Notes under the pieces: generated by a model
The model's input: only the letters and a program-made list of their open reading frames with translations
What the model was told of the DNA's origin: nothing
Database searches by the model: none
From: a virus
Length of the DNA stretch: 21,484 bases
Direction: 5' to 3' (one strand)
IMG/VR virus record: IMGVR_UViG_3300037246_001650
Location: 1 to 21,484 of that record
Translations under genes and position numbers: made by a program
Shown here: positions 2,835-20,796 of the stretch, in pieces
Layout: each line of letters starts with the position of its first letter
How positions within the stretch are numbered: the first letter of the stretch is position 1

Positions 2835-3024
2835 CTCCACCTCCTGATCTGTTCTCCCCCTCTGGCACGGCCGGTGCGTCCTTGAACGCCATGCACGCGC
2901 ACATTGCCTTCAGGAACCCGTCGATCCCAATCTTGGCCACACATCCCAGATCGTCATCGTTACCCGACTCCCAGGTGTGTTTATCCTCGGAATGCCCACA
3001 GTCCACGCACACATTAACTAGCAT
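2827..3024 (-). CDS. Small cysteine-rich protein, paralogue of 7788-7970
   Basis: A 65-aa protein from an ATG at 3024 with GAGGAG seven bases upstream. It begins inside the end of recT. It has CVDCGHSEDKH, a central Cys and a CAC triplet, giving the pattern C-x2-C-x-H-x4-H-...-C-...-C-x-C. The product at 7788-7970 has the same pattern (CLNCQHDENDHH ... C ... CMC), so the two are probably paralogues, one in each early operon. Likely a compact zinc-binding fold; role unknown. Confidence 0.65.
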   Translation of the reverse strand: MLVNVCVDCGHSEDKHTWESGNDDDLGCVAKIGIDGFLKAMCACMAFKDAPAVPEGENRSGGGDE

Positions 3025-3838
3025 CGTCGGGCTCCTCATTCTCTCCCGCGGGCACGTCCGCCGCAATCGGCACCTCGCCATCCTTCGGCGTCACGTCGAT
3101 CGCATCGCCGAGATCCTGCGACAAGCCGATCTCTGCCTGCTCGTCCAGCGTGATTGCGCGCGAGAGTTCGGTGGAGCAAGGGGCGTACTTTGCGAGACGG
3201 CGGAAGACCGTCTTCTTGCCGCCCTCGGCGTAGTGGTTGGTCCACATGGGAGAGTTCTTCCCAGGCGAGTGATTCCTGATCTTCTCCACGTCGGCAAGCG
3301 TCATCACGTCCATCAGCGTCCCGCTCGTAGTCGTGTTGATGATCGAATAGAAATGGGTGATCTTGCTCCGGTCGGCGTCGTCGCTCGGCTTGTGCTTGAT
3401 GAACTTGCCGGTTCCGAATTGATAGTCGAACTCGTCGCCGTCGTAGACCGCGTGCGCTTCGATGTCCGCGATCATGCCAGAGCGGTAGGCGAGCGAGGCC
3501 ATGCCGCGATAGCCGATCCACATGTTGGCCTGCTTGCAGCCGGCCTTGGTGTTGTAGAGCGCCACGAGCCAGCAGTGACCTAGCGTGCCAATCTCCAGCC
3601 CGAGCTGCGCGGCCTCCAGAAGCGCCCCTAGCAGGCTTTGACGGTCGCACTCGGTAAACAGTGCCGGCTGCTTACGGAACGCCACGAGGGCCAGCGCGTT
3701 GAGCTTCTTGAGCGAGATGTGATCGGGGAGTAGGTCTCCGATCTGCGACTGGATCTCCGGCTTGGCGATGAGCGCCTTGACGCTCGTGAACGCTTCTTGC
3801 TGGGTCGTTAGTTCGCTACTCAAAGGGACTCTCCTCAT
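3014..3838 (-). CDS. recT: RecT-family single-strand annealing protein
   Basis: A 274-aa ATP-independent single-strand annealing protein that coats 3' tails made by a partner exonuclease and anneals them to complementary DNA in phage recombination. Diagnostic RecT stretches include LLEAAQLGLEIG followed by GHCWLVALYNTKAG, WIGYRGMASLAYRSG, HYAEGGKKTVFRRLAKY and an acidic C-terminal tail. The ATG at 3838 has AGGA four bases upstream. A TTG at 3823 with a better site (AGGAGAG) and an 8-base overlap with the upstream gene is a credible alternative that would remove five residues. It is paired with the YqaJ-type exonuclease at 4019-4918. Confidence 0.92.
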   Translation of the reverse strand: MRRVPLSSELTTQQEAFTSVKALIAKPEIQSQIGDLLPDHISLKKLNALALVAFRKQPALFTECDRQSLLGALLEAAQLGLEIGTLGHCWLVALYNTKAGCKQANMWIGYRGMASLAYRSGMIADIEAHAVYDGDEFDYQFGTGKFIKHKPSDDADRSKITHFYSIINTTTSGTLMDVMTLADVEKIRNHSPGKNSPMWTNHYAEGGKKTVFRRLAKYAPCSTELSRAITLDEQAEIGLSQDLGDAIDVTPKDGEVPIAADVPAGENEEPDDAS

Positions 3839-4019
3839 GGAATCCTGCATAGGCTCGGTCTATCAATTTTCGGATCAGGGTTTTTAACTCGCTCGTCGGC
3901 CCGGTATAGTCGGCGCCCTTCAGGACCTCGGCGATTCTCTTCCACTGAGCCACATTCATGGTCAGCGTCATCGTGGCCTGCATCTCGTCTGGATTGTCAA
4001 GCTGAAAGTTTCCCTCCAT
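3816..4019 (-). CDS. Small conserved early protein, paralogue of 7056-7259
   Basis: A 67-aa protein. The ATG at 4019 has GGAGGAG directly upstream and forms a TGATG junction with the nuclease gene. A longer frame to 4079 lacks such a site. The sequence MEGNFQLDNPDE...ATMTLTM...W..I ... LIRKL..RA...FH aligns with MKGTFKLDNPDE...ATLTMTM...W..I ... LIRDL..RA...FH at 7056-7259. By eye about 27 of 67 positions are identical with one gap. The two copies bracket the leftward operon. No family is recognised, and the position between the exonuclease and RecT does not by itself prove a recombination role. Confidence 0.75.
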   Translation of the reverse strand: MEGNFQLDNPDEMQATMTLTMNVAQWKRIAEVLKGADYTGPTSELKTLIRKLIDRAYAGFHEESPFE

Positions 4020-4918
4020 CACTCCTCCCTCGGCGGACGCAAAGTCCGCTTCCCGTTTACGTCCGCCAGCCAGGTCCACTTTTCCCCAGCCGGTAGTACC
4101 CCTTCGTCAGCGTCGCCGATCGCAGCGCGGAACAGATTCTTGATCTCAGTAATCCGCGTCTCGTTGTCCTTGCTCGCCGCCTTGAGCTGCTTGTACTGCG
4201 CGTGGAGATCGACGAACTCTCCCGGCAGCGAGATCGACTCCCTGTAAGCGTTCGGGTAGATCCGAGCGAGCGCCTTCGCGGTAGCCGGCGAGGCATCGGG
4301 CAGCGGCGGCGGGCCTTTGTGGAGGACGCGATCCCAAAAGGATCCGCACTCAGGCACCAGCGTCTCTTCGATGAACTTGTCATCTCGCTCCACGTCGCGC
4401 CATTTGAACTCGCTGCCGCAGATCAGGACGGCCACTGAGGCCATCGGGGCGCCCGTGACGGCCATCTGATGCTGTAATTGGATGCCGACGTGCTGCGGGA
4501 CGCCATCGGACCAGCCAGCGCGGTCCTGGGTGTTTTTGACTTCGAGGGGGAGCCGGGGGACACAACCGCCACCGGCAACGTCCGCCTCCTGCCACCCGTC
4601 CAGCGTGCAGAGCATGAAGGGCCACCGCTTCGAGCGTAGGAGTTCCCCCGCGGGTTCGACCGGGCGCCCCACCTCGCCGTCGAACCACCCCAGAATCACC
4701 GGCTCCAGTATGCGCCCCCACTCCATGCGCTCGTCGAATTCGTCCACCGGAGGATCTTCGGAGATCTTGTCGGCGTACACCTCCATCGCGCTCGACCACC
4801 GCGGCCAATCGATGCCCAGCACCCACGGCGACTCACTCGCGCCGATGCCCGTCCGCCGAGCCAGCAGCCACTCGGGACGATTCGTGGAGTCGCAGACGAT
4901 TTCGTAATCGGCGGTCAT
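4019..4918 (-). CDS. YqaJ-type viral recombinase exonuclease (PD-(D/E)XK fold)
   Basis: A 299-aa nuclease predicted to resect double-stranded ends to make 3' tails for RecT. Family features in order are RRTGIGASES (about 21-30), the WGRILEP segment with Glu72, CTLDG with Asp107, LEVKN with Glu126 and Lys128, and QLQHQM at about 147-152. These match the YqaJ/lambda Red alpha catalytic core. The ATG at 4918 overlaps the upstream stop by 4 bases. Length is close to that of other family members. The nuclease plus RecT pair is the usual two-gene phage recombination module. Confidence 0.88.
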   Translation of the reverse strand: MTADYEIVCDSTNRPEWLLARRTGIGASESPWVLGIDWPRWSSAMEVYADKISEDPPVDEFDERMEWGRILEPVILGWFDGEVGRPVEPAGELLRSKRWPFMLCTLDGWQEADVAGGGCVPRLPLEVKNTQDRAGWSDGVPQHVGIQLQHQMAVTGAPMASVAVLICGSEFKWRDVERDDKFIEETLVPECGSFWDRVLHKGPPPLPDASPATAKALARIYPNAYRESISLPGEFVDLHAQYKQLKAASKDNETRITEIKNLFRAAIGDADEGVLPAGEKWTWLADVNGKRTLRPPREE

Positions 4919-7970: not shown

Positions 7971-8461
7971 GAGAAACCAACCGATTGAACCGAATCGCAG
8001 CGGAATGCCTCCGCGAGTCAGATGGCGACTGGGAGGCCGCGGCATTGGCAATGCGAAAGCAAATCGACAGCAAGCCGAGACTTCGCACCGAGCTTATGAA
8101 GCCGCTGATCGCGGGCGCAATCTGGGATCGGATCCGTTTCGCAGCGCATGAGGATCGCAAGAAATGTCTCCGGCCCGACGCGGGCGAGGACAACACCGAT
8201 GGGCTTGAGGCGATGGCGCGGCGGACTCTGCTGGACTTCCAGCTCCGGGGCGGCACGCGGCTCGGTGATGCCACGCGGCCCGAGGTCACAGAGGCGGCTG
8301 ACTGGTACGGCACTCTTGCGCGGACGAACGGTGCTAACGCAGCGTGGCTCAAGTCGGTTGCGAGGGCATTGCCCGACGATGAGAAGCTGGTCTCGGACGT
8401 GCTGACCGAAGATCAGGCGCGAAGGCTGCGGACCAGGGCTGAGAAGAGTTCAACCCGATGA
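7967..8461 (+). CDS. Hypothetical protein upstream of the RNA array
   Basis: A 164-aa, mostly helical protein with balanced charge (LNRIAAECLRESDGDWEAAALAMRKQID...). No catalytic motif is seen. Its last three codons and stop lie in the 5' arm of the first hairpin of the RNA array. Translation to the end would therefore meet the array's first stem, which could couple translation to RNA folding. The start shares an ATGA with the previous gene. Confidence 0.65.
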   Translation: MRETNRLNRIAAECLRESDGDWEAAALAMRKQIDSKPRLRTELMKPLIAGAIWDRIRFAAHEDRKKCLRPDAGEDNTDGLEAMARRTLLDFQLRGGTRLGDATRPEVTEAADWYGTLARTNGANAAWLKSVARALPDDEKLVSDVLTEDQARRLRTRAEKSSTR

Positions 8462-8512
8462 GGCGGGCCACCCACGTGATGTCTACCAGGGGCGACGTGC
8501 TCGCTTCGTCGG
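8455..8512 (+). repeat. Array hairpin 1
   Basis: Arms 8455-8468 and 8499-8512 (14 pairs, G-U at 8459/8508, 8462/8505 and 8466/8501). Bulged C8469, closing A8470-U8498, loop 8471-8497. Loop core TGTCTACCA at 8480-8488 reads with T10 and G11. GTTCAA precedes it at 8448-8453. Confidence 0.85.
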
Positions 8513-8523
8513 TCTCGTTTCAA

Positions 8524-8581
8524 CCGATGGCTGGGGCCAGTAGCGTGGTGAAGCCCAGTAGCAGGATGCCCCGGCCGTCGG
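8524..8581 (+). repeat. Array hairpin 2
   Basis: Arms 8524-8537 and 8568-8581 (14 pairs, G-U at 8528/8577 and 8532/8573). Bulged C8538, closing A8539-U8567, loop 8540-8566, core TGAAGCCCA. Linker to hairpin 1 is TCTCGTTTCAA. Confidence 0.88.
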
Positions 8582-8590
8582 AATTTCAAC

Positions 8591-8646
8591 GAGTGGCGCG
8601 GGCCAGTGAGACACTGCCTACCGCGCGAAAAGTGCCCGTGCCGCTC
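8591..8646 (+). repeat. Array hairpin 3
   Basis: Arms 8591-8603 and 8634-8646 (13 pairs, G-U at 8594/8643 and 8598/8639). Bulged C8604, closing A8605-U8633, loop 8606-8632, core TGCCTACCG. Linker AATTTCAAC. An alternative fold (8596-8601 with 8621-8626) is possible. Confidence 0.85.
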
Positions 8647-8654
8647 TCGTTTCA

Positions 8655-8703
8655 AGGCTGGGCCAAACAACTCGCGACGCCCACCTATCCCCTGCCCACG
8701 CCT
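8655..8703 (+). repeat. Array hairpin 4
   Basis: Arms 8655-8663 and 8694-8703 (9 pairs with C8699 unpaired). Bulged C8664, closing A8665-U8693, loop 8666-8692, core CGACGCCCA. This is the shortest stem and the only core starting with C. Confidence 0.78.
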
Positions 8704-8705
8704 AT

Positions 8706-8765
8706 GCACCCGGTCGAGTCCGGTGAGCGCCTGTTACCCAGTAGAGGGCTGCCTCGATCGGGTGC
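8706..8765 (+). repeat. Array hairpin 5
   Basis: Arms 8706-8718 and 8753-8765 (13 pairs, G-U at 8713/8758), a U8719/C8752 mismatch, then C8720-G8751. Bulged C8721, closing G8722-U8750, loop 8723-8749, core TGTTACCCA. Confidence 0.82.
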
Positions 8766-8766
8766 T

Positions 8767-8835
8767 AGCTTTAATCAACCCGCGGACCAAAGTGACCTTG
8801 ACGCCCATCACTGTGGTGTCCGCGGGTTGAAAGCT
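8767..8835 (+). repeat. Array hairpin 6
   Basis: Inner arms 8776-8787 and 8818-8829 are 12 perfect pairs. AGCTTT (8767-8772) and AAAGCT (8830-8835) add 6 more past an AAT bulge. Bulged C8788, closing A8789-U8817, loop 8790-8816, core TGACGCCCA. AGTGA and TCACT inside the loop can pair. Confidence 0.88.
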
Positions 8836-8884
8836 GTTGCGGGCCACACCCAGGGTGCCACCCATCGTCATGGTGCTCGCAGCG
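8835..8884 (+). repeat. Array hairpin 7
   Basis: Arms 8835-8844 and 8875-8884 (10 pairs, G-U at 8835/8884, 8837/8882 and 8842/8877). Bulged C8845, closing A8846-U8874, loop 8847-8873, core TGCCACCCA. It ends just before the ribosome binding site of the IS110-like gene. Confidence 0.8.
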
Positions 8885-8902
8885 CCGGAGGAGGTAGAGC
8901 AA

Positions 8903-9700
8903 ATGTCTAGCGCAGGTTCTAACTCCTCCGGCATCTACAATGGCCTGCTTACCGAACTCAAGGAAACCGTCCGTCGACGGGATGATCTAATCCGGCCGGA
9001 GGTGCGGCTAACGCTTCAGATCAAGTCGATCTGTCGGCGGGTCTGTAGCAGACAATGTCCTGATTTTGATACCGATGCCAAGCGCTATGCCTGGATCAAA
9101 AAAGAAGGCCGACTTCTTTACACAGCAATCATGAAAGGCCAGCAACACGAGATGCTGAGCGTGGGCGCTCCAGCGTGTTTCGTGTTGCTCCAGGTTCGCG
9201 CGCAGATCCACAGCGAGATCCTGCCCGTCGAGCGTAGGCTGAAGGAGCTCGCCCAGAAGCTGCCGGTCTGGGATTGGTGGGATTCGGTCCACGGGCTGGG
9301 CGCGCTTGGGCTGGCAGCGATCGTTGCAGAGACGGGCGATCTCTCGAACTATGCCAACCCCGGCAAAGTCTGGAAGCGCATGGGCGTTGCGGTCATCAAC
9401 GGAGAGCGGCAGAGGAAGAAGAAGGGCGCCGAGGCGCTCGAGCACGGATACTCGCCGCGCCGGCGTAGCACAATCTGGGTTGTCTCGGATAGCCTGCTGA
9501 AGAAGCCCAATGAATATAAAGAGCTGTATGACTGGCGTAAGGCCGAACAGGCAGAGAAGTGGCCGGAGCGCAAGAAGGGCCACCTCCACAACGATGCTCG
9601 GCGCTATGTCGGGAAGCGGCTACTGAAGCACCTCTGGCGGGCTTGGCGCCGTACATGTAGTGACGACCAGATTTGCTCTGCGCCGGGCTCGCCAGAATGA
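8903..9700 (+). CDS. IS110/IS116/IS902-type transposase C-terminal domain protein, domesticated in phage
   Basis: A 265-aa protein from an ATG at 8903 with GGAGGAGGT seven bases upstream. Frames open to a TTG at 8837 run into the hairpin array and are rejected. Residues about 127-245 match the IS110 C-terminal (Transposase_20) domain: VHGLGALGLAAIVAETGDLSNY, WKRMGVAVINGERQ, HGYSPRRRSTIW, RRYVGKRLLKHLWRAW. The N-terminal 120 residues are helical and basic and show no RuvC-like DEDD motif. The conserved Ser-Gly of active IS110 enzymes seems replaced by Asn166-Gly167. No flanking insertion-sequence ends are seen. It probably binds nucleic acid rather than catalysing transposition. The adjacent hairpin array is the obvious candidate partner. 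Confidence 0.75.
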   Translation: MSSAGSNSSGIYNGLLTELKETVRRRDDLIRPEVRLTLQIKSICRRVCSRQCPDFDTDAKRYAWIKKEGRLLYTAIMKGQQHEMLSVGAPACFVLLQVRAQIHSEILPVERRLKELAQKLPVWDWWDSVHGLGALGLAAIVAETGDLSNYANPGKVWKRMGVAVINGERQRKKKGAEALEHGYSPRRRSTIWVVSDSLLKKPNEYKELYDWRKAEQAEKWPERKKGHLHNDARRYVGKRLLKHLWRAWRRTCSDDQICSAPGSPE

Positions 9701-9732: not shown

Positions 9733-9812
9733 CCGTCAGCCAGCGCACCCCACCAACCGCACCTTCCAACCCGCGCTGGCTGGCGGTAGGCGGCGGTGGG
9801 GGGCGCACCACC
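9733..9812 (+). other. Structured intergenic RNA element, possible pseudoknot
   Basis: The 139-base gap between the IS110-like and ASCH-like genes holds a 14-pair stem (9733-9746 with 9773-9786, one U-G pair) with a 26-nt, C- and A-rich loop. CCCCACC in the loop (9748-9754) is complementary to GGTGGGG at 9795-9801, so an H-type pseudoknot can form. It resembles the upstream hairpins in size but lacks the bulged C and the TGNNNMCCA core. AGGAG at 9827-9831 serves the next gene. Confidence 0.55.
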
Positions 9813-9839
9813 CTTGCCGTCGCCGTAGGAGATAAGTAG

Positions 9840-12729: not shown

Positions 12730-13097
12730 AGAGAATTCTCGTCTGTGGTAGTCGGCACTTCGATGACAGCGCAAGAATGGAGTTACACCTAATTGATCAC
12801 GGCTGCATCCGTGAAGACGTGCTTCTGATACACGGGGCGTGTGGTGGCGCCGACACCATTGCTGACACTATCGCGAAACGTCTTGGGTGGTGGGTCGTGT
12901 CGTGCCCAGCAGATTGGAGCATTGGGCGGGGCGCCGGCCCGAATCGCAACCAAGCGATGTTGGATGAATTCCACCCCGAACAAGTATTGGCCTTTCCGGT
13001 TGGCGAATCCAAGGGCACTCGGGACATGATCCGTCGCGCAGTGGCTGCCAAAATCCCATGCATCACCTACGAATCCGCCCAGGATCCCACCCGATGA
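12726..13097 (+). CDS. DUF2493/YspA-like SLOG-superfamily protein
   Basis: A 123-aa Rossmann-like protein with KRILVCGSRHFDD at the N-terminus, IHGACGGADTIADTIAKRLGW in the middle and GAGPNRNQAMLDEFHPEQVLAFP, the usual DUF2493 pattern. SLOG proteins bind nucleotides or their derivatives; the substrate here is unknown. The start is a TTG in a TTGA overlap with the methyltransferase stop. It is preceded by the same GCAGGAGGTG site as that gene. An ATGA overlap couples it to the ATPase gene. Confidence 0.82.
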   Translation: MKRILVCGSRHFDDSARMELHLIDHGCIREDVLLIHGACGGADTIADTIAKRLGWWVVSCPADWSIGRGAGPNRNQAMLDEFHPEQVLAFPVGESKGTRDMIRRAVAAKIPCITYESAQDPTR

Positions 13098-13675
13098 CCG
13101 AGTGGGCATCACATATCGGGATTCCGAAGATATGCCGCGACACGGCGATCTCGGTGGCTCTCGTGCCGGATCTCGCGAAGACGTGGGCCGAAAAGCTCCC
13201 TGAATCGGCGCGCGTGGCCGGAGGGATGCTGCTGGCCGGCCCCCCGGGGAGCGGGAAGAGCTTCACGGCTGCCTGGATGCTGCTCGAGCTCTACCGGAGA
13301 TGCTGGTTCACAGCCGATGGCCAGCCGGTCGGGCCTTGGGAGCGCATCGGCGCCCGGTTCATCCGATGCCACGATGTCACCCGCGCGGCCGTGATGAAGG
13401 ACTTCGCGCAGATCCGGACGTGGTGGGAGCCTGACGTCCTCGTGCTCGATGACTGGCCCGACGGTCTCCCGGCGTGGCTTGTGCTTGAACTGACCGACCT
13501 GCTCGACCGCCGCCACGTCGAGCAGCGATTCACGATCGTCACGACCAACATCCTCTGCGGCAAGCCGGACGAAACCGACACCTTCGAAACGAACTATTCG
13601 CGGGCTGCGTCTCGGCTCTTGGACGCCCGCGGGCCGGGGCTCGTGGTCTTGAATCGAGGGGATTTGAGGAGGTGA
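13094..13675 (+). CDS. DnaC-like AAA+ helicase loader
   Basis: A 193-aa P-loop ATPase. Walker A is GPPGSGKS (49-56), Walker B VLVLDDW (115-121), sensor I-like TTN (150-152), and a C-terminal SRL (173-175) has the expected arginine. The small size and motif spacing fit DnaC/DnaI-type loaders, which place the host replicative helicase on phage DNA. It follows the probable origin-binding protein in the same operon, which supports this. The ATG at 13094 overlaps the upstream stop by 4 bases; the frame is open further upstream, but inside the SLOG gene. Confidence 0.82.
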   Translation: MTEWASHIGIPKICRDTAISVALVPDLAKTWAEKLPESARVAGGMLLAGPPGSGKSFTAAWMLLELYRRCWFTADGQPVGPWERIGARFIRCHDVTRAAVMKDFAQIRTWWEPDVLVLDDWPDGLPAWLVLELTDLLDRRHVEQRFTIVTTNILCGKPDETDTFETNYSRAASRLLDARGPGLVVLNRGDLRR

Positions 13676-16396: not shown

Positions 16397-16614
16397 TCGA
16401 GTGCTCTCGCGAACTACTGAGTGATGGCGTCGATCTCGAAGCGATCTACATGTGCCTAGCTGCTCCTGCAATCGCTAGGCAATTCGACCACGAGATGGAA
16501 ATCATGGGTCAGCATATCGACGCTCGTTATCGCCATGCTGCGCGCCGCAGAGAGGTTCAATCAGTGTTCGCGCGCAGGAAGGCGGAGCGCCTTCGATTGG
16601 TGGAAGCGGCATGA
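16393..16614 (+). CDS. Hypothetical small helical protein between terminase genes
   Basis: A 73-aa protein (IECSRELLSDGVDLEAIYMCLAAPAIARQFDHEMEIM...) with a basic C-terminal helix. The best start is a TTG at 16393 in a TTGA overlap with the previous stop, with AGGAG nine bases upstream. It ends in an ATGA overlap with the large terminase. It could be a helper of the small subunit; no family recognised. Confidence 0.58.
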   Translation: MIECSRELLSDGVDLEAIYMCLAAPAIARQFDHEMEIMGQHIDARYRHAARRREVQSVFARRKAERLRLVEAA

Positions 16615-17951
16615 TCTCCGACCCTCTCCGCACCCTCATGGACCCGAAGTGGACGGAGTTCATTCCCCACGAGCCCACCGTCAAGCAGCACGCAGCGCTC
16701 TTGCTGGACGACTACCCCGAGGTGCTCTATGGCGGGGCAGCCGGTGGCGGCAAGTCCGACTTCCTGCTGATGGCCGCGCTGCAGTACGTGGACGTGCCAG
16801 GCTATGCGGCGCTGATCTTGCGGCGGACATTCTCCGAGCTCGCGCTCTCCGATGGCATGATGCTGCGGGCTCAGGAGTGGCTCTCAGGTAGGGCGAATGG
16901 GATCGACTCGATCGGTGGCGTGCCTACCAAGTGGAACTTCCCATCCGGCGCGCGTCTCGAGTTCGGCCATGTCCACCACGACAAGGACCGCTACAACTAC
17001 AAGAGCGCCGCCTACCAGTTCATCGGCTTCGATGAATTGACCGGATTCCCGAAGACCATCTATCTCTACCTCCGCTCACGGCTGCGACGCATGGCCGGCT
17101 CAAAGCTCCCGATTCGCACGCGCTGTGCGAGCAATCCCGGTGACATCGGGCACGACTGGGTGAAAGAGCGATTCGTCACCGGTAACCCCGATGCGGAGGT
17201 TCAACGTGTGTTCCTACCTGCAACTCTGGCAGACAACCCTTATCTCGATCAAGACGAATACGAGAAAACCCTTCAGGATCTCCACCCTTATGACCGTGAG
17301 CAGCTCCTCAACGGCAACTGGGATGCGCGCCCTCCCGGTGGCCGCTTCAAACGCGAGTGGTTCAAGTTCATCGACGAGCAGCCCGCTGGACTCGAGCGCG
17401 TCCGCCGCTGGGATCTTGCAGCGACCGAGCCGAAGCCTGGCAGGGATCCCGACTACAGCGTAGGCGTCGACATGGGCCGCTGGACTAACGGCTCGGTCAA
17501 GTTCGTGATCTCGGACGTCCAGCGCTTCCGCGAGTCGCCGGCTGGGATCGATGGGCGCATCGTCCAGGTTGCCGACCAAGATGGCCGAGCGGTCAAGGTC
17601 CGCATCGAGCAGGAGCCGGGATCAAGCGGCAAGATCGCCATCGCCCACTTCGCCAACCTGCTCGAAGCCTACGACTTCAAGGGCGTCCCGAGCACCGGCG
17701 ACAAGGTCGTCCGTTCGAACGCCTTTGCAGCAGCCTGCGAGCGCGGCGAGGTGGCGCTGGTCCGAGCGCCTTGGAATGAGCCCTACCTCCGCGAGCTCGA
17801 GATGTTTACCGGCAGCGACAAGGATTGCCCGCATGACGACCAAGTGGACGCTTCGGGTGGTGCGCATACCGACCTGACCTACCAGCGCGGCCTCTCGCCG
17901 TCCGACACGAATCTCTTCAGCGCTCCTGCTGGAGCGGAGGCGACGCAGTAA
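16611..17951 (+). CDS. terL: Terminase large subunit
   Basis: A 446-aa packaging motor and nuclease. The ATPase part has Walker A GGAAGGGKS (41-49), preceded by the adenine-binding-type KQHAALL, and Walker B FIGFDE (137-142). The nuclease part begins near VRRWDLAATE (Asp268 probable metal ligand), followed by DYSVGVDMGR and the C-terminal HDDQVDASGGA. The length and motif order fit the Terminase_6/GpA-like large subunits. ATG in a 4-base overlap with the upstream gene. Confidence 0.93.
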   Translation: MISDPLRTLMDPKWTEFIPHEPTVKQHAALLLDDYPEVLYGGAAGGGKSDFLLMAALQYVDVPGYAALILRRTFSELALSDGMMLRAQEWLSGRANGIDSIGGVPTKWNFPSGARLEFGHVHHDKDRYNYKSAAYQFIGFDELTGFPKTIYLYLRSRLRRMAGSKLPIRTRCASNPGDIGHDWVKERFVTGNPDAEVQRVFLPATLADNPYLDQDEYEKTLQDLHPYDREQLLNGNWDARPPGGRFKREWFKFIDEQPAGLERVRRWDLAATEPKPGRDPDYSVGVDMGRWTNGSVKFVISDVQRFRESPAGIDGRIVQVADQDGRAVKVRIEQEPGSSGKIAIAHFANLLEAYDFKGVPSTGDKVVRSNAFAAACERGEVALVRAPWNEPYLRELEMFTGSDKDCPHDDQVDASGGAHTDLTYQRGLSPSDTNLFSAPAGAEATQ

Positions 17952-18130
17952 TGGTGATCTACAACCCGACGCCGAAAGAGTACGAGAGGATGCGAATCAA
18001 AGAGCTCGAATGGCGCGCTCGCTGGTTCGAACGGCTCAAGATCGCTGGCCGACGCGCTCTGGTCGCAGGCGGTCTTGCTCTCGTGCTGTGCCAGCTAGCG
18101 AAGTGGCAGCTGTGGGCGTGGTCGCTATGA
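17951..18130 (+). CDS. 59-aa single-span membrane protein
   Basis: ATG 17951 shares one base with the terminase stop (TAATG). The N-terminal half is charged and basic (NPTPKEYERMRIKELEWRARWFERLKIAGRR). A single membrane helix follows (ALVAGGLALVLCQLA), then a Trp-rich end. An ATGA overlap couples it to another tiny membrane protein. Membrane microproteins between terminase and portal are unusual; role unknown. Confidence 0.62.
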   Translation: MVIYNPTPKEYERMRIKELEWRARWFERLKIAGRRALVAGGLALVLCQLAKWQLWAWSL

Positions 18131-18228
18131 GCTGGCCCGACCCCGAACCCAACGCTGATGCTGTGCCGCGTCTCTTGGTTATCGCTGGGATTCTGATCGC
18201 GCTCTCGATGGTGGTGGGATCGCTATGA
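18127..18228 (+). CDS. 33-aa membrane microprotein
   Basis: ATG 18127 to TGA 18226-18228, with ATGA overlaps at both ends. A Pro/Asp-rich start (SWPDPEPNADAVP) leads to one membrane helix (LLVIAGILIALSMVVGSL). It could form a pair with the preceding membrane protein. Confidence 0.58.
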   Translation: MSWPDPEPNADAVPRLLVIAGILIALSMVVGSL

Positions 18229-18440
18229 GTCACGTAGAGATGTGTTTAGGCTGCGGCGAACAGCATGGGATTCTCTACGTATGCCCAGACGCCTCACCGG
18301 ACGTTCAAGCAAGAAAGACTGCCGAGGGCGAGAAGTTCGCGGAAGCCGTGCAGGATGGCAGCGCGTTCCCAGAAGGCACGCCAGCGATTGCCAAAGCGAT
18401 CATGGCGGCGTTCGCGGGCGCTAGGATGGATTCGCAGTGA
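18225..18440 (+). CDS. Hypothetical protein with N-terminal Cys cluster
   Basis: A 71-aa protein beginning SHVEMCLGCGEQHGILYVC, a possible CxxC...C zinc site, followed by a helical, Ala-rich region. Start and end are 4-base overlaps with the neighbours. No recognised family. Confidence 0.6.
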   Translation: MSHVEMCLGCGEQHGILYVCPDASPDVQARKTAEGEKFAEAVQDGSAFPEGTPAIAKAIMAAFAGARMDSQ

Positions 18441-18688
18441 CCAAGCGAATCCGCCTGACGATCGAATGGGATGGGGCGTGCAGCGAGGCTGACTGGGCTC
18501 GCAACCTCTCGGAAGCGATCGAAGAATGCGACCGATCGAAGGTCACGAAGGTGGTCGACGTCGAGCTTATCACCGATCATGGCGAGACCGAGATCCGCGA
18601 TATCCCCGGCATTCTTCCTGCGACGCCATTCTGGGAAGCATTCAAGCGCTGGCTGAAACAGCCTGCACGCGATACGGGATTTCGATGA
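18437..18688 (+). CDS. Hypothetical protein
   Basis: An 83-aa protein from a GTG (GTGA overlap). It looks like a small alpha/beta fold (TKRIRLTIEWDG, VTKVVDVELITDHGETEIRDIP). It precedes the portal gene with an ATGA overlap. Function unknown. Confidence 0.6.
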   Translation: MTKRIRLTIEWDGACSEADWARNLSEAIEECDRSKVTKVVDVELITDHGETEIRDIPGILPATPFWEAFKRWLKQPARDTGFR

Positions 18689-20796
18689 GCCTCACCCAAA
18701 CCATCTCCAATTGGTTCTCCCCGAAGCAGATCACCGAAGCCCAAGCCATCGAAGCGCTGATGCGCGCCGGCACTGACCCGATCGCCTTCCACACGCTCTG
18801 GGCGCAGACCTTCGGGCCCGGCATCGGTAACCAGCCGAGCCATGCAGCGCTTCTCCGCGAGAGCCTCGGGATTGCGGACACGGCCACACGTGCCATCGCC
18901 AACCGCGTGTCCACACTCGATCCGCTCGTGAAGGTCAACCGGCGCATGGGCGGCAAGGTGGTTGTCGAGACGCTGCCCGATAACGCGCTGAAGCGCTTGC
19001 TCGATCATCCGCATCCCGATATGACGCGCGCGAATCTCTTCCGGCTGACCACCCAGTACATCATCACAGTCGGCGAGGCGTACTGGCAGAAGATCGGCTC
19101 GAAGCTCGGCGTTCCCTTCCAGCTGCATCCTATTCCGCCCGGGCAGATCGTCCCGGTTCTCTCGCGCGGCGTTGTCTCGGGCTACTGGGTTACAGAAGGC
19201 GATGGGTCACGATCGTTTCTCGACAAGGAATTCGTCGTCCGGTTCTACTTCCCAGACCCCGAGAATCCTTGGGGCTCCGAAGGCTACCTCGGCCCGGAGG
19301 GGCTGACCGCCGACTCTCTGAAGTTCGCCGGCCAGCACTGGCGAGGCCACTACGAGAACGACGCCACGCCGAAGCTGATGATTGAGACCGATTCGGACGC
19401 TACGCCGCTGCAAGGGGGCAACCTGACGGCCTTTGAGGCGAACTGGAAGCAGCTCTACCACTCCAGATCGGGCAAGAACCGCGGAACTCCCGGCGTCCTG
19501 CCCAACGGCTACAAGGCCCACGAGCTGAAGTTCCAAACCGGCGCCGAGATTGTCCCGCTGCTGCAGCATTGGCGCGATGAGCAGCTGATGGGCATGGGCG
19601 TCCCGCGCAGCATCCTCGGTCAGAGCGAGTCCGGCGACCGCTCGACCGCCGAGACCAATCAGTACGTCTTCGACCGGCACACGATCCAGCCGGTGGCCAA
19701 CCTGATCGCCGATGGGATCACGCTGCAGCTGGCTCCCGACTTCGATCCGTCGCTCTTTGTCGAGTTTGCTCCGTATATCTCCGCGGACAAGGAGTTCGAC
19801 CTCAGGCAGGAAGATCTCCGGCTGAAGAACAAGGTGACCGTGATCAACGAGGTGCGCGAAGCTGACGGCATGGAGCCTGTGGACCACGGGTCAGAGCCCG
19901 TTGGCACGTTCGCCGATGTGCCTTATCGACCTGATGAGCGCTTCGATCTGGAAGAAGATGACCCCGATGCACTTGGCGATCGGGTTCGTGGGCTCCCTGC
20001 TTCCACCGAGCCACGCGCCGAACCCACCGCCCAAGTCCGCGCCGAGTGGGCCCGCCAGGTCCAGCGCGAGAAGAAGTTCGTGCCGATCTACGAACTTGCC
20101 CTGAAGCGGCTCTTCAAGAAACAGCGCGTCGACACGATCAAGAATCTCTATGCGCTAGAGGAGAGGAAGCGTATAGAGGTCAGCATCTCGGACGTGTTCG
20201 ACCCGGACGAGTGGCTCGATGATTTCGTTAAGAAACTGGACCCGATTCGCCGCGAGGCTTTCGTCAGCACTGCCAAGGAGACTCTCTCGTTCATCTCGGA
20301 CAAGGACTTCAACTTTACTAACGCTATGAAAAAGTCGCTCAGGCGACAGAGCGAGCAGCTGGCAGGGCACGTTAACAAGACGACCGCTGACATGATCACA
20401 CGGCAGCTAAAACTTGGTGCCGAGAACGGCGAGAGTATCAGCCAGCTTGCAAATAGGATCAGAGACAACGTATTCAACCCAAGAGCGAAGGCGCAAGCTC
20501 AAACGATTGCCAGGACTGAAATGCTCAAGGCTAGCCAGTCTGCACAACAGGAATCATTCGAGCAGAGCGGCGTGGTCGAGCAGAAGCAGTGGAATACTTC
20601 GCTTGACGGAGAGGTCCGCGATTCCCATATATCTGCGGAAGGGCAGATCGTCGACCTCGATGAAGCCTTTGTGCTTGGTGATGGCGAACTTGCCGACCAG
20701 CCTGGCGTCGGAGAGGGTGGCGGTGAGTTGAGCGCTGGAAACACGATCAACTGCCGGTGCTTCATGACACCGGTCACGATCTTGACGGAGAACTGA
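18685..20796 (+). CDS. Portal protein fused to Mu F-like head morphogenesis domain
   Basis: A 703-aa fusion. Residues about 1-430 are an HK97-type portal (IANRVSTLDPLVKV, HPHPDMTRANLFRLTTQYIITVGEAYW, LHPIPPGQIVPV, WRDEQLMGMGVPRSILGQSE, an F..HTIQPVANLI stem-like segment), which forms the dodecameric DNA entry ring. After an acidic linker (about 430-500), the C-terminal part has the Mu F-like pattern ARTEMLKASQ, WNTSLDGEVRDSH, GQIVDLDEAF and the final NTINCRCF. The ATG at 18685 follows an ATGA overlap; the frame is open further upstream but inside the previous gene. In many phages these are two genes. Confidence 0.9.
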   Translation: MSLTQTISNWFSPKQITEAQAIEALMRAGTDPIAFHTLWAQTFGPGIGNQPSHAALLRESLGIADTATRAIANRVSTLDPLVKVNRRMGGKVVVETLPDNALKRLLDHPHPDMTRANLFRLTTQYIITVGEAYWQKIGSKLGVPFQLHPIPPGQIVPVLSRGVVSGYWVTEGDGSRSFLDKEFVVRFYFPDPENPWGSEGYLGPEGLTADSLKFAGQHWRGHYENDATPKLMIETDSDATPLQGGNLTAFEANWKQLYHSRSGKNRGTPGVLPNGYKAHELKFQTGAEIVPLLQHWRDEQLMGMGVPRSILGQSESGDRSTAETNQYVFDRHTIQPVANLIADGITLQLAPDFDPSLFVEFAPYISADKEFDLRQEDLRLKNKVTVINEVREADGMEPVDHGSEPVGTFADVPYRPDERFDLEEDDPDALGDRVRGLPASTEPRAEPTAQVRAEWARQVQREKKFVPIYELALKRLFKKQRVDTIKNLYALEERKRIEVSISDVFDPDEWLDDFVKKLDPIRREAFVSTAKETLSFISDKDFNFTNAMKKSLRRQSEQLAGHVNKTTADMITRQLKLGAENGESISQLANRIRDNVFNPRAKAQAQTIARTEMLKASQSAQQESFEQSGVVEQKQWNTSLDGEVRDSHISAEGQIVDLDEAFVLGDGELADQPGVGEGGGELSAGNTINCRCFMTPVTILTEN

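What the first reader, a model, noticed from the sequence alone, without database searches (positions are those of the whole stretch)
8455..9700. Hairpin array sits directly upstream of a RuvC-less IS110-like protein: candidate RNA-guided system
IS110 transposases use a bridge RNA, encoded next to the gene, whose loops hold left and right guides for DNA. Here a protein with the IS110 C-terminal domain but no visible DEDD RuvC domain, and with Asn-Gly where Ser-Gly is expected, follows an array of hairpins with paired variable segments. This suggests domestication into a multi-guide DNA- or RNA-binding system, comparable in logic to nuclease-dead TnpB-like repressors. Possible roles are silencing host or rival phage genes, or self-regulation.
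Basis: partly seen in the sequence, partly recalled or inferred. Interest (0 to 1): 0.93.

Follow-up and report, generated by a model that had tools for sequence, protein, structure and literature searches.

The report
Phage TIGR-TasA guide array and effector
This phage carries a TIGR-Tas locus, a recently described RNA-guided DNA-binding system, with at least seven hairpin guides (an eighth is weaker) next to a nuclease-free Tas protein; relatives show that the guide segments are completely exchanged while the hairpins around them stay the same.

Summary
From 8455 to 8884 lie seven hairpins in tandem, and an eighth lies inside the 3' end of the gene. They share one grammar: stem, CCA, 9-nt spacer A, TG, 4 nt, CCA, 9-nt spacer B, TG, stem. 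The protein (8903-9700, 265 aa) is not a domesticated IS110 transposase. It is a Tas protein without a nuclease (TasA). Its closest solved structures are TIGR-TasR (9MTY) and TasH, and NCBIfam TIGR_Tas_endo matches at 97.8 bits, just under its cut-off of 100. The array matches the stem-loop TIGR array described by Faure et al. (Science 2025, PMC12045711). In relatives, a scan finds 154 units on the gene strand, none on the other strand and none in shuffled DNA; the stems covary strongly. Beyond the paper: in related phages, hairpins at matching positions keep about 93% identical stems and flanks, but both spacers are no more alike than random. No target was found. Most likely function: RNA-guided, non-cutting DNA binding against rival genetic elements. 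This is a new member of a known kind, with a testable lead on spacer turnover.

The parts
8455..8512 (+). guide hairpin 1: 13-bp stem; spacer A CCCACGTGA, spacer B GGGGCGACG (core 8468-8499)
   Evidence: exact grammar; model E 7.1e-5
8524..8581 (+). guide hairpin 2: 13-bp stem; GTAGCGTGG / GTAGCAGGA (core 8537-8568)
   Evidence: exact grammar; model E 9.5e-7
8591..8646 (+). guide hairpin 3: 12-bp stem; GTGAGACAC / CGCGAAAAG, second box C is CCG (core 8603-8634)
   Evidence: model E 9.3e-5
8654..8704 (+). guide hairpin 4, short bulged stem, first box D is CG; AACAACTCG / CCTATCCCC (core 8663-8694)
   Evidence: model E 0.0023
8706..8765 (+). guide hairpin 5, weak: 13-bp stem offset by 1, first box C is CCG; GTGAGCGCC / GTAGAGGGC (core 8720-8751)
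   Evidence: model E 0.088
8775..8830 (+). guide hairpin 6: 12-bp stem; AAGTGACCT / TCACTGTGG (core 8787-8818)
   Evidence: exact grammar; fold z -5.6; model E 5.2e-6
8835..8884 (+). guide hairpin 7: 9-bp stem; CACCCAGGG / TCGTCATGG (core 8844-8875), ends just before the ribosome-binding site
   Evidence: exact grammar; model E 3.3e-6
8903..9700 (+). tasA gene, 265 aa, coiled coil plus Nop/IS110-type C-terminal domain, no nuclease domain
   Evidence: 9MTY TasR E 2.5e-15; NF052498 TIGR_Tas_endo 97.8 bits; AlphaFold pLDDT 86.8; Z 18.2 to TasR
9633..9696 (+). guide hairpin 8, inside the 3' end of tasA: 16-bp stem; TACATGTAG / GATTTGCTC (core 9649-9680)
   Evidence: model E 4.3e-4; fold z -3.4; units at or over the end of the gene in several relatives
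8884..8932 (+). hairpin that encloses the ribosome-binding site and start codon of tasA; not a guide unit (no boxes)
   Evidence: inverted repeat I3; -30 kcal/mol, z -3.6

Best explanation
It is a TIGR-TasA locus with a stem-loop array, carried by a tailed phage. The array and tasA are read on the same strand. Each hairpin would be cut out as one guide RNA in which CCA (box C) and TG (box D) frame two 9-nt spacers. A TasA dimer would hold one guide, and the two spacers would pair with opposite strands of an 18-20 bp DNA site (target = spacer A + 0-2 bp + reverse complement of spacer B). With no nuclease, TasA would bind, unwind and bend the target without cutting, most likely blocking transcription or replication of rival genetic elements in the same host. 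Shown here: grammar, stems, protein family and fold, coupling of array and gene, and spacer exchange in relatives. Inferred from Faure et al. 2025: RNA processing, dimer, dual-strand targeting. Inferred only: the biological role.
For: Array grammar. Relatives: 154 units on the gene strand, 0 on the other strand, 0 in shuffles; 22 of 24 related records carry units. Stem: 96.9% of cells paired versus 54.9% in shuffles, changes on both sides at all 9 pairs, covariation score 1.015 versus at most 0.275 when slid. Protein: TasR 9MTY E 2.5e-15 single, 1.1e-21 profile; TasH 1.5e-10; NF052498 in 24 of 24 members. Fold: Z 18.2 TasR, 17.6 TasH, 14.8 IS110 ISCro4, about 8 box C/D Nop5. [quoted passage not shown]
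Against: NF052498 is 2.2 bits under its cut-off. Hairpins 4 and 5 are degenerate. No target was found, so DNA targeting by this locus is not shown. No transcription or RNA-binding data exist for this phage. Faure et al. saw no phage or conjugation protection by TasR in E. coli.
Confidence: 0.93

Rival explanations
1. A domesticated IS110 transposase that kept a bridge-RNA-like array.
For: Pfam Transposase_20; IS110 fold similarity Z 14-15; bridge RNA also carries paired guides.
Against: TasR and TasH are nearer by sequence and fold; TIGR_Tas_endo outscores the IS110 model 97.8 to 43.6 bits; many single dual-spacer units instead of one two-loop bridge RNA.
Confidence: 0.04
2. Same system, other role: the guides direct TasA to the phage's own genome (self-regulation, packaging or integration aid).
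For: Possible in principle for a non-cutting binder; Faure et al. suggest an aid to integrases.
Against: Own-genome matches of 141 units: 14 versus 10.9 for shuffled pairings, the one window hit being the array itself; no match at 0-2 mismatches for the window units in the window.
Confidence: 0.08
3. The hairpins are ordinary regulatory or terminator structures, or a coding repeat (an open frame 8458-8910 spans the array).
For: Open frame of 150 codons.
Against: Fixed 3-9-2-4-3-9-2 spacing, covarying stems, presence beside the gene across relatives on one strand only.
Confidence: 0.01

Closest known systems
TIGR-TasA with stem-loop array (Faure et al. 2025, PMC12045711; Peromyscus gut locus)
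   Same: solo Nop-type protein without nuclease; tandem hairpins; two spacers framed by box C and box D; phage-borne
   Different: fixed 4-nt element between TG and CCA in the core (like a true loop repeat) with variable stems in place of edge repeats; one unit lies inside the end of tasA; 8 units
TIGR-TasR (9MTY) and TasH (9W03, 9VZX, 21KL)
   Same: C-terminal fold, conserved Asn-Gly (seen in TasR), CCA and UG boxes as in TasR arrays, 9-nt spacers as in TasR
   Different: they carry N-terminal RuvC or HNH nucleases and dual-repeat arrays; none here
IS110 bridge-RNA recombinases (IS621, ISCro4)
   Same: C-terminal domain fold; paired guide logic
   Different: no DEDD RuvC domain, no single bridge RNA, more distant in sequence and fold
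Box C/D snoRNP (Nop5)
   Same: coiled coil plus Nop domain, C/D-framed dual guides
   Different: no kink-turn/L7Ae or fibrillarin known here; distant (Z about 8)

Membership tests
TIGR-Tas | Nop-domain Tas protein | tested here: met
   9MTY E 2.5e-15; Z 18.2 to TasR over 194 residues; NF052498 E 8.4e-28, 97.8 bits against cut-off 100
TIGR-Tas | adjacent array of dual 9-nt spacers framed by box C and box D | tested here: met
   8 units, CCA and TG boxes
TIGR-Tas, stem-loop type | variable palindromic sequence in place of edge repeats | tested here: met
   stems of 9-16 bp, covarying across relatives
TIGR-TasA | no nuclease domain | tested here: met
   265 aa, coiled coil from residue 8, no room for RuvC or HNH; only Transposase_20 in Pfam
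TIGR-Tas | array processed into guide RNAs bound by Tas | not testable with these tools
   needs RNA pull-down
TIGR-Tas | tandem dual-strand DNA targeting | tested here: inconclusive
   no matching natural target found
IS110 transposase | N-terminal DEDD RuvC domain | tested here: not met
   absent in sequence and model
IS110 transposase | catalytic Ser in the C-terminal domain | tested here: inconclusive

The most novel reading that the evidence does not exclude
Stem-loop TIGR arrays renew their guides in place: a process swaps the two 9-nt spacers of a hairpin while leaving stems, boxes and linkers untouched, unlike CRISPR, which adds whole repeat-spacer units. In related Rhizobiaceae-type phages, 7 positionally matched hairpin pairs with 93% identical flanks have spacer identities of 27% and 17%, against 25-27% for random pairs.
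Probability: 0.45. Interest if true: 0.82.

Novelty: new member of a known kind. Interest (0 to 1): 0.5.

Why it matters
TIGR-Tas was published in 2025; where its spacers come from and what nuclease-free TasA does are stated open questions. This locus and its relatives give a defined unit grammar, a covariance model that finds arrays, and syntenic arrays in phages and prophages of Rhizobiaceae (Shinella, Rhizobium) in which the guides differ while the scaffold does not. That makes spacer turnover directly testable.

Tried and rejected
Target search with A + gap 0-2 + rc(B) in 1.1 Mb of own and related phages: 2 hits at 1 mismatch and 19 at 2, versus means of 1.5 and 31.7 for shuffled pairings; the three other arrangements were no better. 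Relaxed own-genome search: 14 versus 10.9. Exact scans of IMG/VR for hairpins 1, 2, 6, 7: 1, 0, 0 and 3 contigs, in contexts unrelated to one another (two of the three are relatives of each other), which I take as chance. Three guides of the Shinella prophage in 237 genomes of its family: none. Single 9-mers are not enriched in own genomes: 145 versus 159 expected. Reverse transcriptase as a diversity generator: none in 10 records. PADLOC: no match. Plasmids: no relative. Searching viral contigs with the L026 protein gave no closer relatives than L026/L027/L024. The two hairpins at 9733-9824 do not fit the guide grammar.

Full report
What is there. Reading 8455-8884 by hand and by script gives seven tandem hairpins with one grammar: stem, CCA, 9 nt, TG, 4 nt, CCA, 9 nt, TG, stem. 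Four units fit exactly and each has a stem of 9-13 bp; shuffles give 0.0015 exact matches per region and none with a stem. A covariance model built from 54 units of this and related loci scores seven window units at E<=0.0023 and one at 0.088; six of the 54 are the window's own, so those scores are partly by construction, while the shuffle test is independent of the model. One of the seven, at 9640-9689, lies inside the 3' end of the gene. The 461-nt region folds with z -3.2.

The protein. The gene most likely starts at ATG 8903, 8 nt after GGAGGAGG, and codes for 265 aa. Its best match among solved structures is TIGR-TasR 9MTY (E 2.5e-15; profile 1.1e-21, TasH 1.5e-10). NCBIfam TIGR_Tas_endo scores 97.8 bits (cut-off 100) and IS110 43.6 bits; all 24 aligned relatives match TIGR_Tas_endo. 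AlphaFold gives pLDDT 86.8: coiled coil, then the Nop/IS110-type domain, with no nuclease. Structural Z: TasR 18.2, TasH 17.6, IS110 recombinases 14-15, box C/D Nop proteins about 8.

Relatives. 24 virome loci and 5 bacterial genome loci were collected (some are the same record twice), plus phages of Sinorhizobium and Microcystis. A scan with the grammar finds 154 units, all on the gene strand, none on the other strand, none in shuffled DNA. Units are found in 22 of 24 records. Of the two exceptions, one contig begins inside the gene (L007) and the other (L022) has units in which both CCA boxes are CGA, which suggests the two boxes change together, as Faure et al. report for box motifs. The stems covary at all 9 pairs with 96.9% of cells paired; the units were selected for paired stems, so the percentage paired leans that way, but the variety of pair types at each position does not follow from that. 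Units also lie in or across the end of the tas frame in several relatives (L009, L011-L013, L016, L017, L020, L028, L031), and within the predicted N-terminal part in L024-L027 if the first ATG with a good ribosome-binding site is the true start. The Microcystis phage relative (L006) showed no unit with this grammar and was not studied further.

Identity. These features are those of the TIGR-TasA stem-loop systems of Faure et al. 2025 (PMC12045711): solo Nop protein, tandem stem-loops, two 8-12 nt spacers framed by box C and D, mostly phage-borne. The CCA and UG boxes are those of TasR arrays. I file it as a member; processing and targeting were not testable here.

Spacer exchange. In relatives close enough to align, hairpins at matching positions keep their stems, boxes and linkers while both spacers differ completely (alignment of L026 and L027). 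For 7 unit pairs with at least 36 of 40 flanking bases identical (mean 93%), boxes are 90% identical, spacer A 27% and spacer B 17%; random pairs give 25% and 27%. No pair at any threshold keeps a whole spacer. The pairs are not all independent, because a few loci contribute to several of them. The window has no close relative, so this is shown for the family, not for the window. Fast point mutation under selection is not excluded, though no clear intermediates were seen among the few pairs. No reverse transcriptase is present in the records tested, and spacers are not drawn from the own genome.

Targets. The published rule (each spacer pairs with a different strand, 0-2 bp gap tolerated, 8-nt 3' overhangs) implies a target of spacer A + gap + rc(spacer B); this orientation is my derivation from the overhang. 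No search found targets above chance. This speaks against self-targeting and leaves unsampled rival elements as the likeliest targets, by inference only.

Function. Best guess: non-cutting, RNA-guided DNA binding that blocks rival elements. Identity as TIGR-TasA 0.93; this particular role perhaps 0.45.

Noticed in passing
8884-8932: A 15-bp hairpin encloses the ribosome-binding site and start codon of tasA; it may limit translation of tasA until melted or bound. Conservation in relatives not tested.
   Followed up: partly
9733-9786 and 9789-9824: Two further strong GC-rich hairpins after tasA (z -3.0 together) that do not follow the guide grammar and have no T-run.
   Followed up: partly
8458-8910: An open frame of 150 codons spans the whole array and overlaps the upstream gene's stop as ATGA; probably chance in GC-rich DNA.
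   Followed up: no
L003 3066-4400 (also L016): A gene that reads like ParB (by eye, not by a family search) follows tasA and its array, as Faure et al. noted for some TasA loci.
   Followed up: no
L012 2426-2974: Array with two stem sequences that largely alternate (ttgagcggg, ttccggcgg) and different spacers: looks intermediate between stem-loop and dual-repeat arrays.
   Followed up: partly
L022 2596 and 2760: Both box C copies read CGA in place of CCA, which suggests the two boxes change together.
   Followed up: partly
window 3014-4918 (-), 13058-13675 (+), 16611-20796 (+): RecT-like and RecE-like genes, DnaC-like helicase loader, terminase large subunit, portal/head genes: an ordinary tailed phage.
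   Followed up: yes
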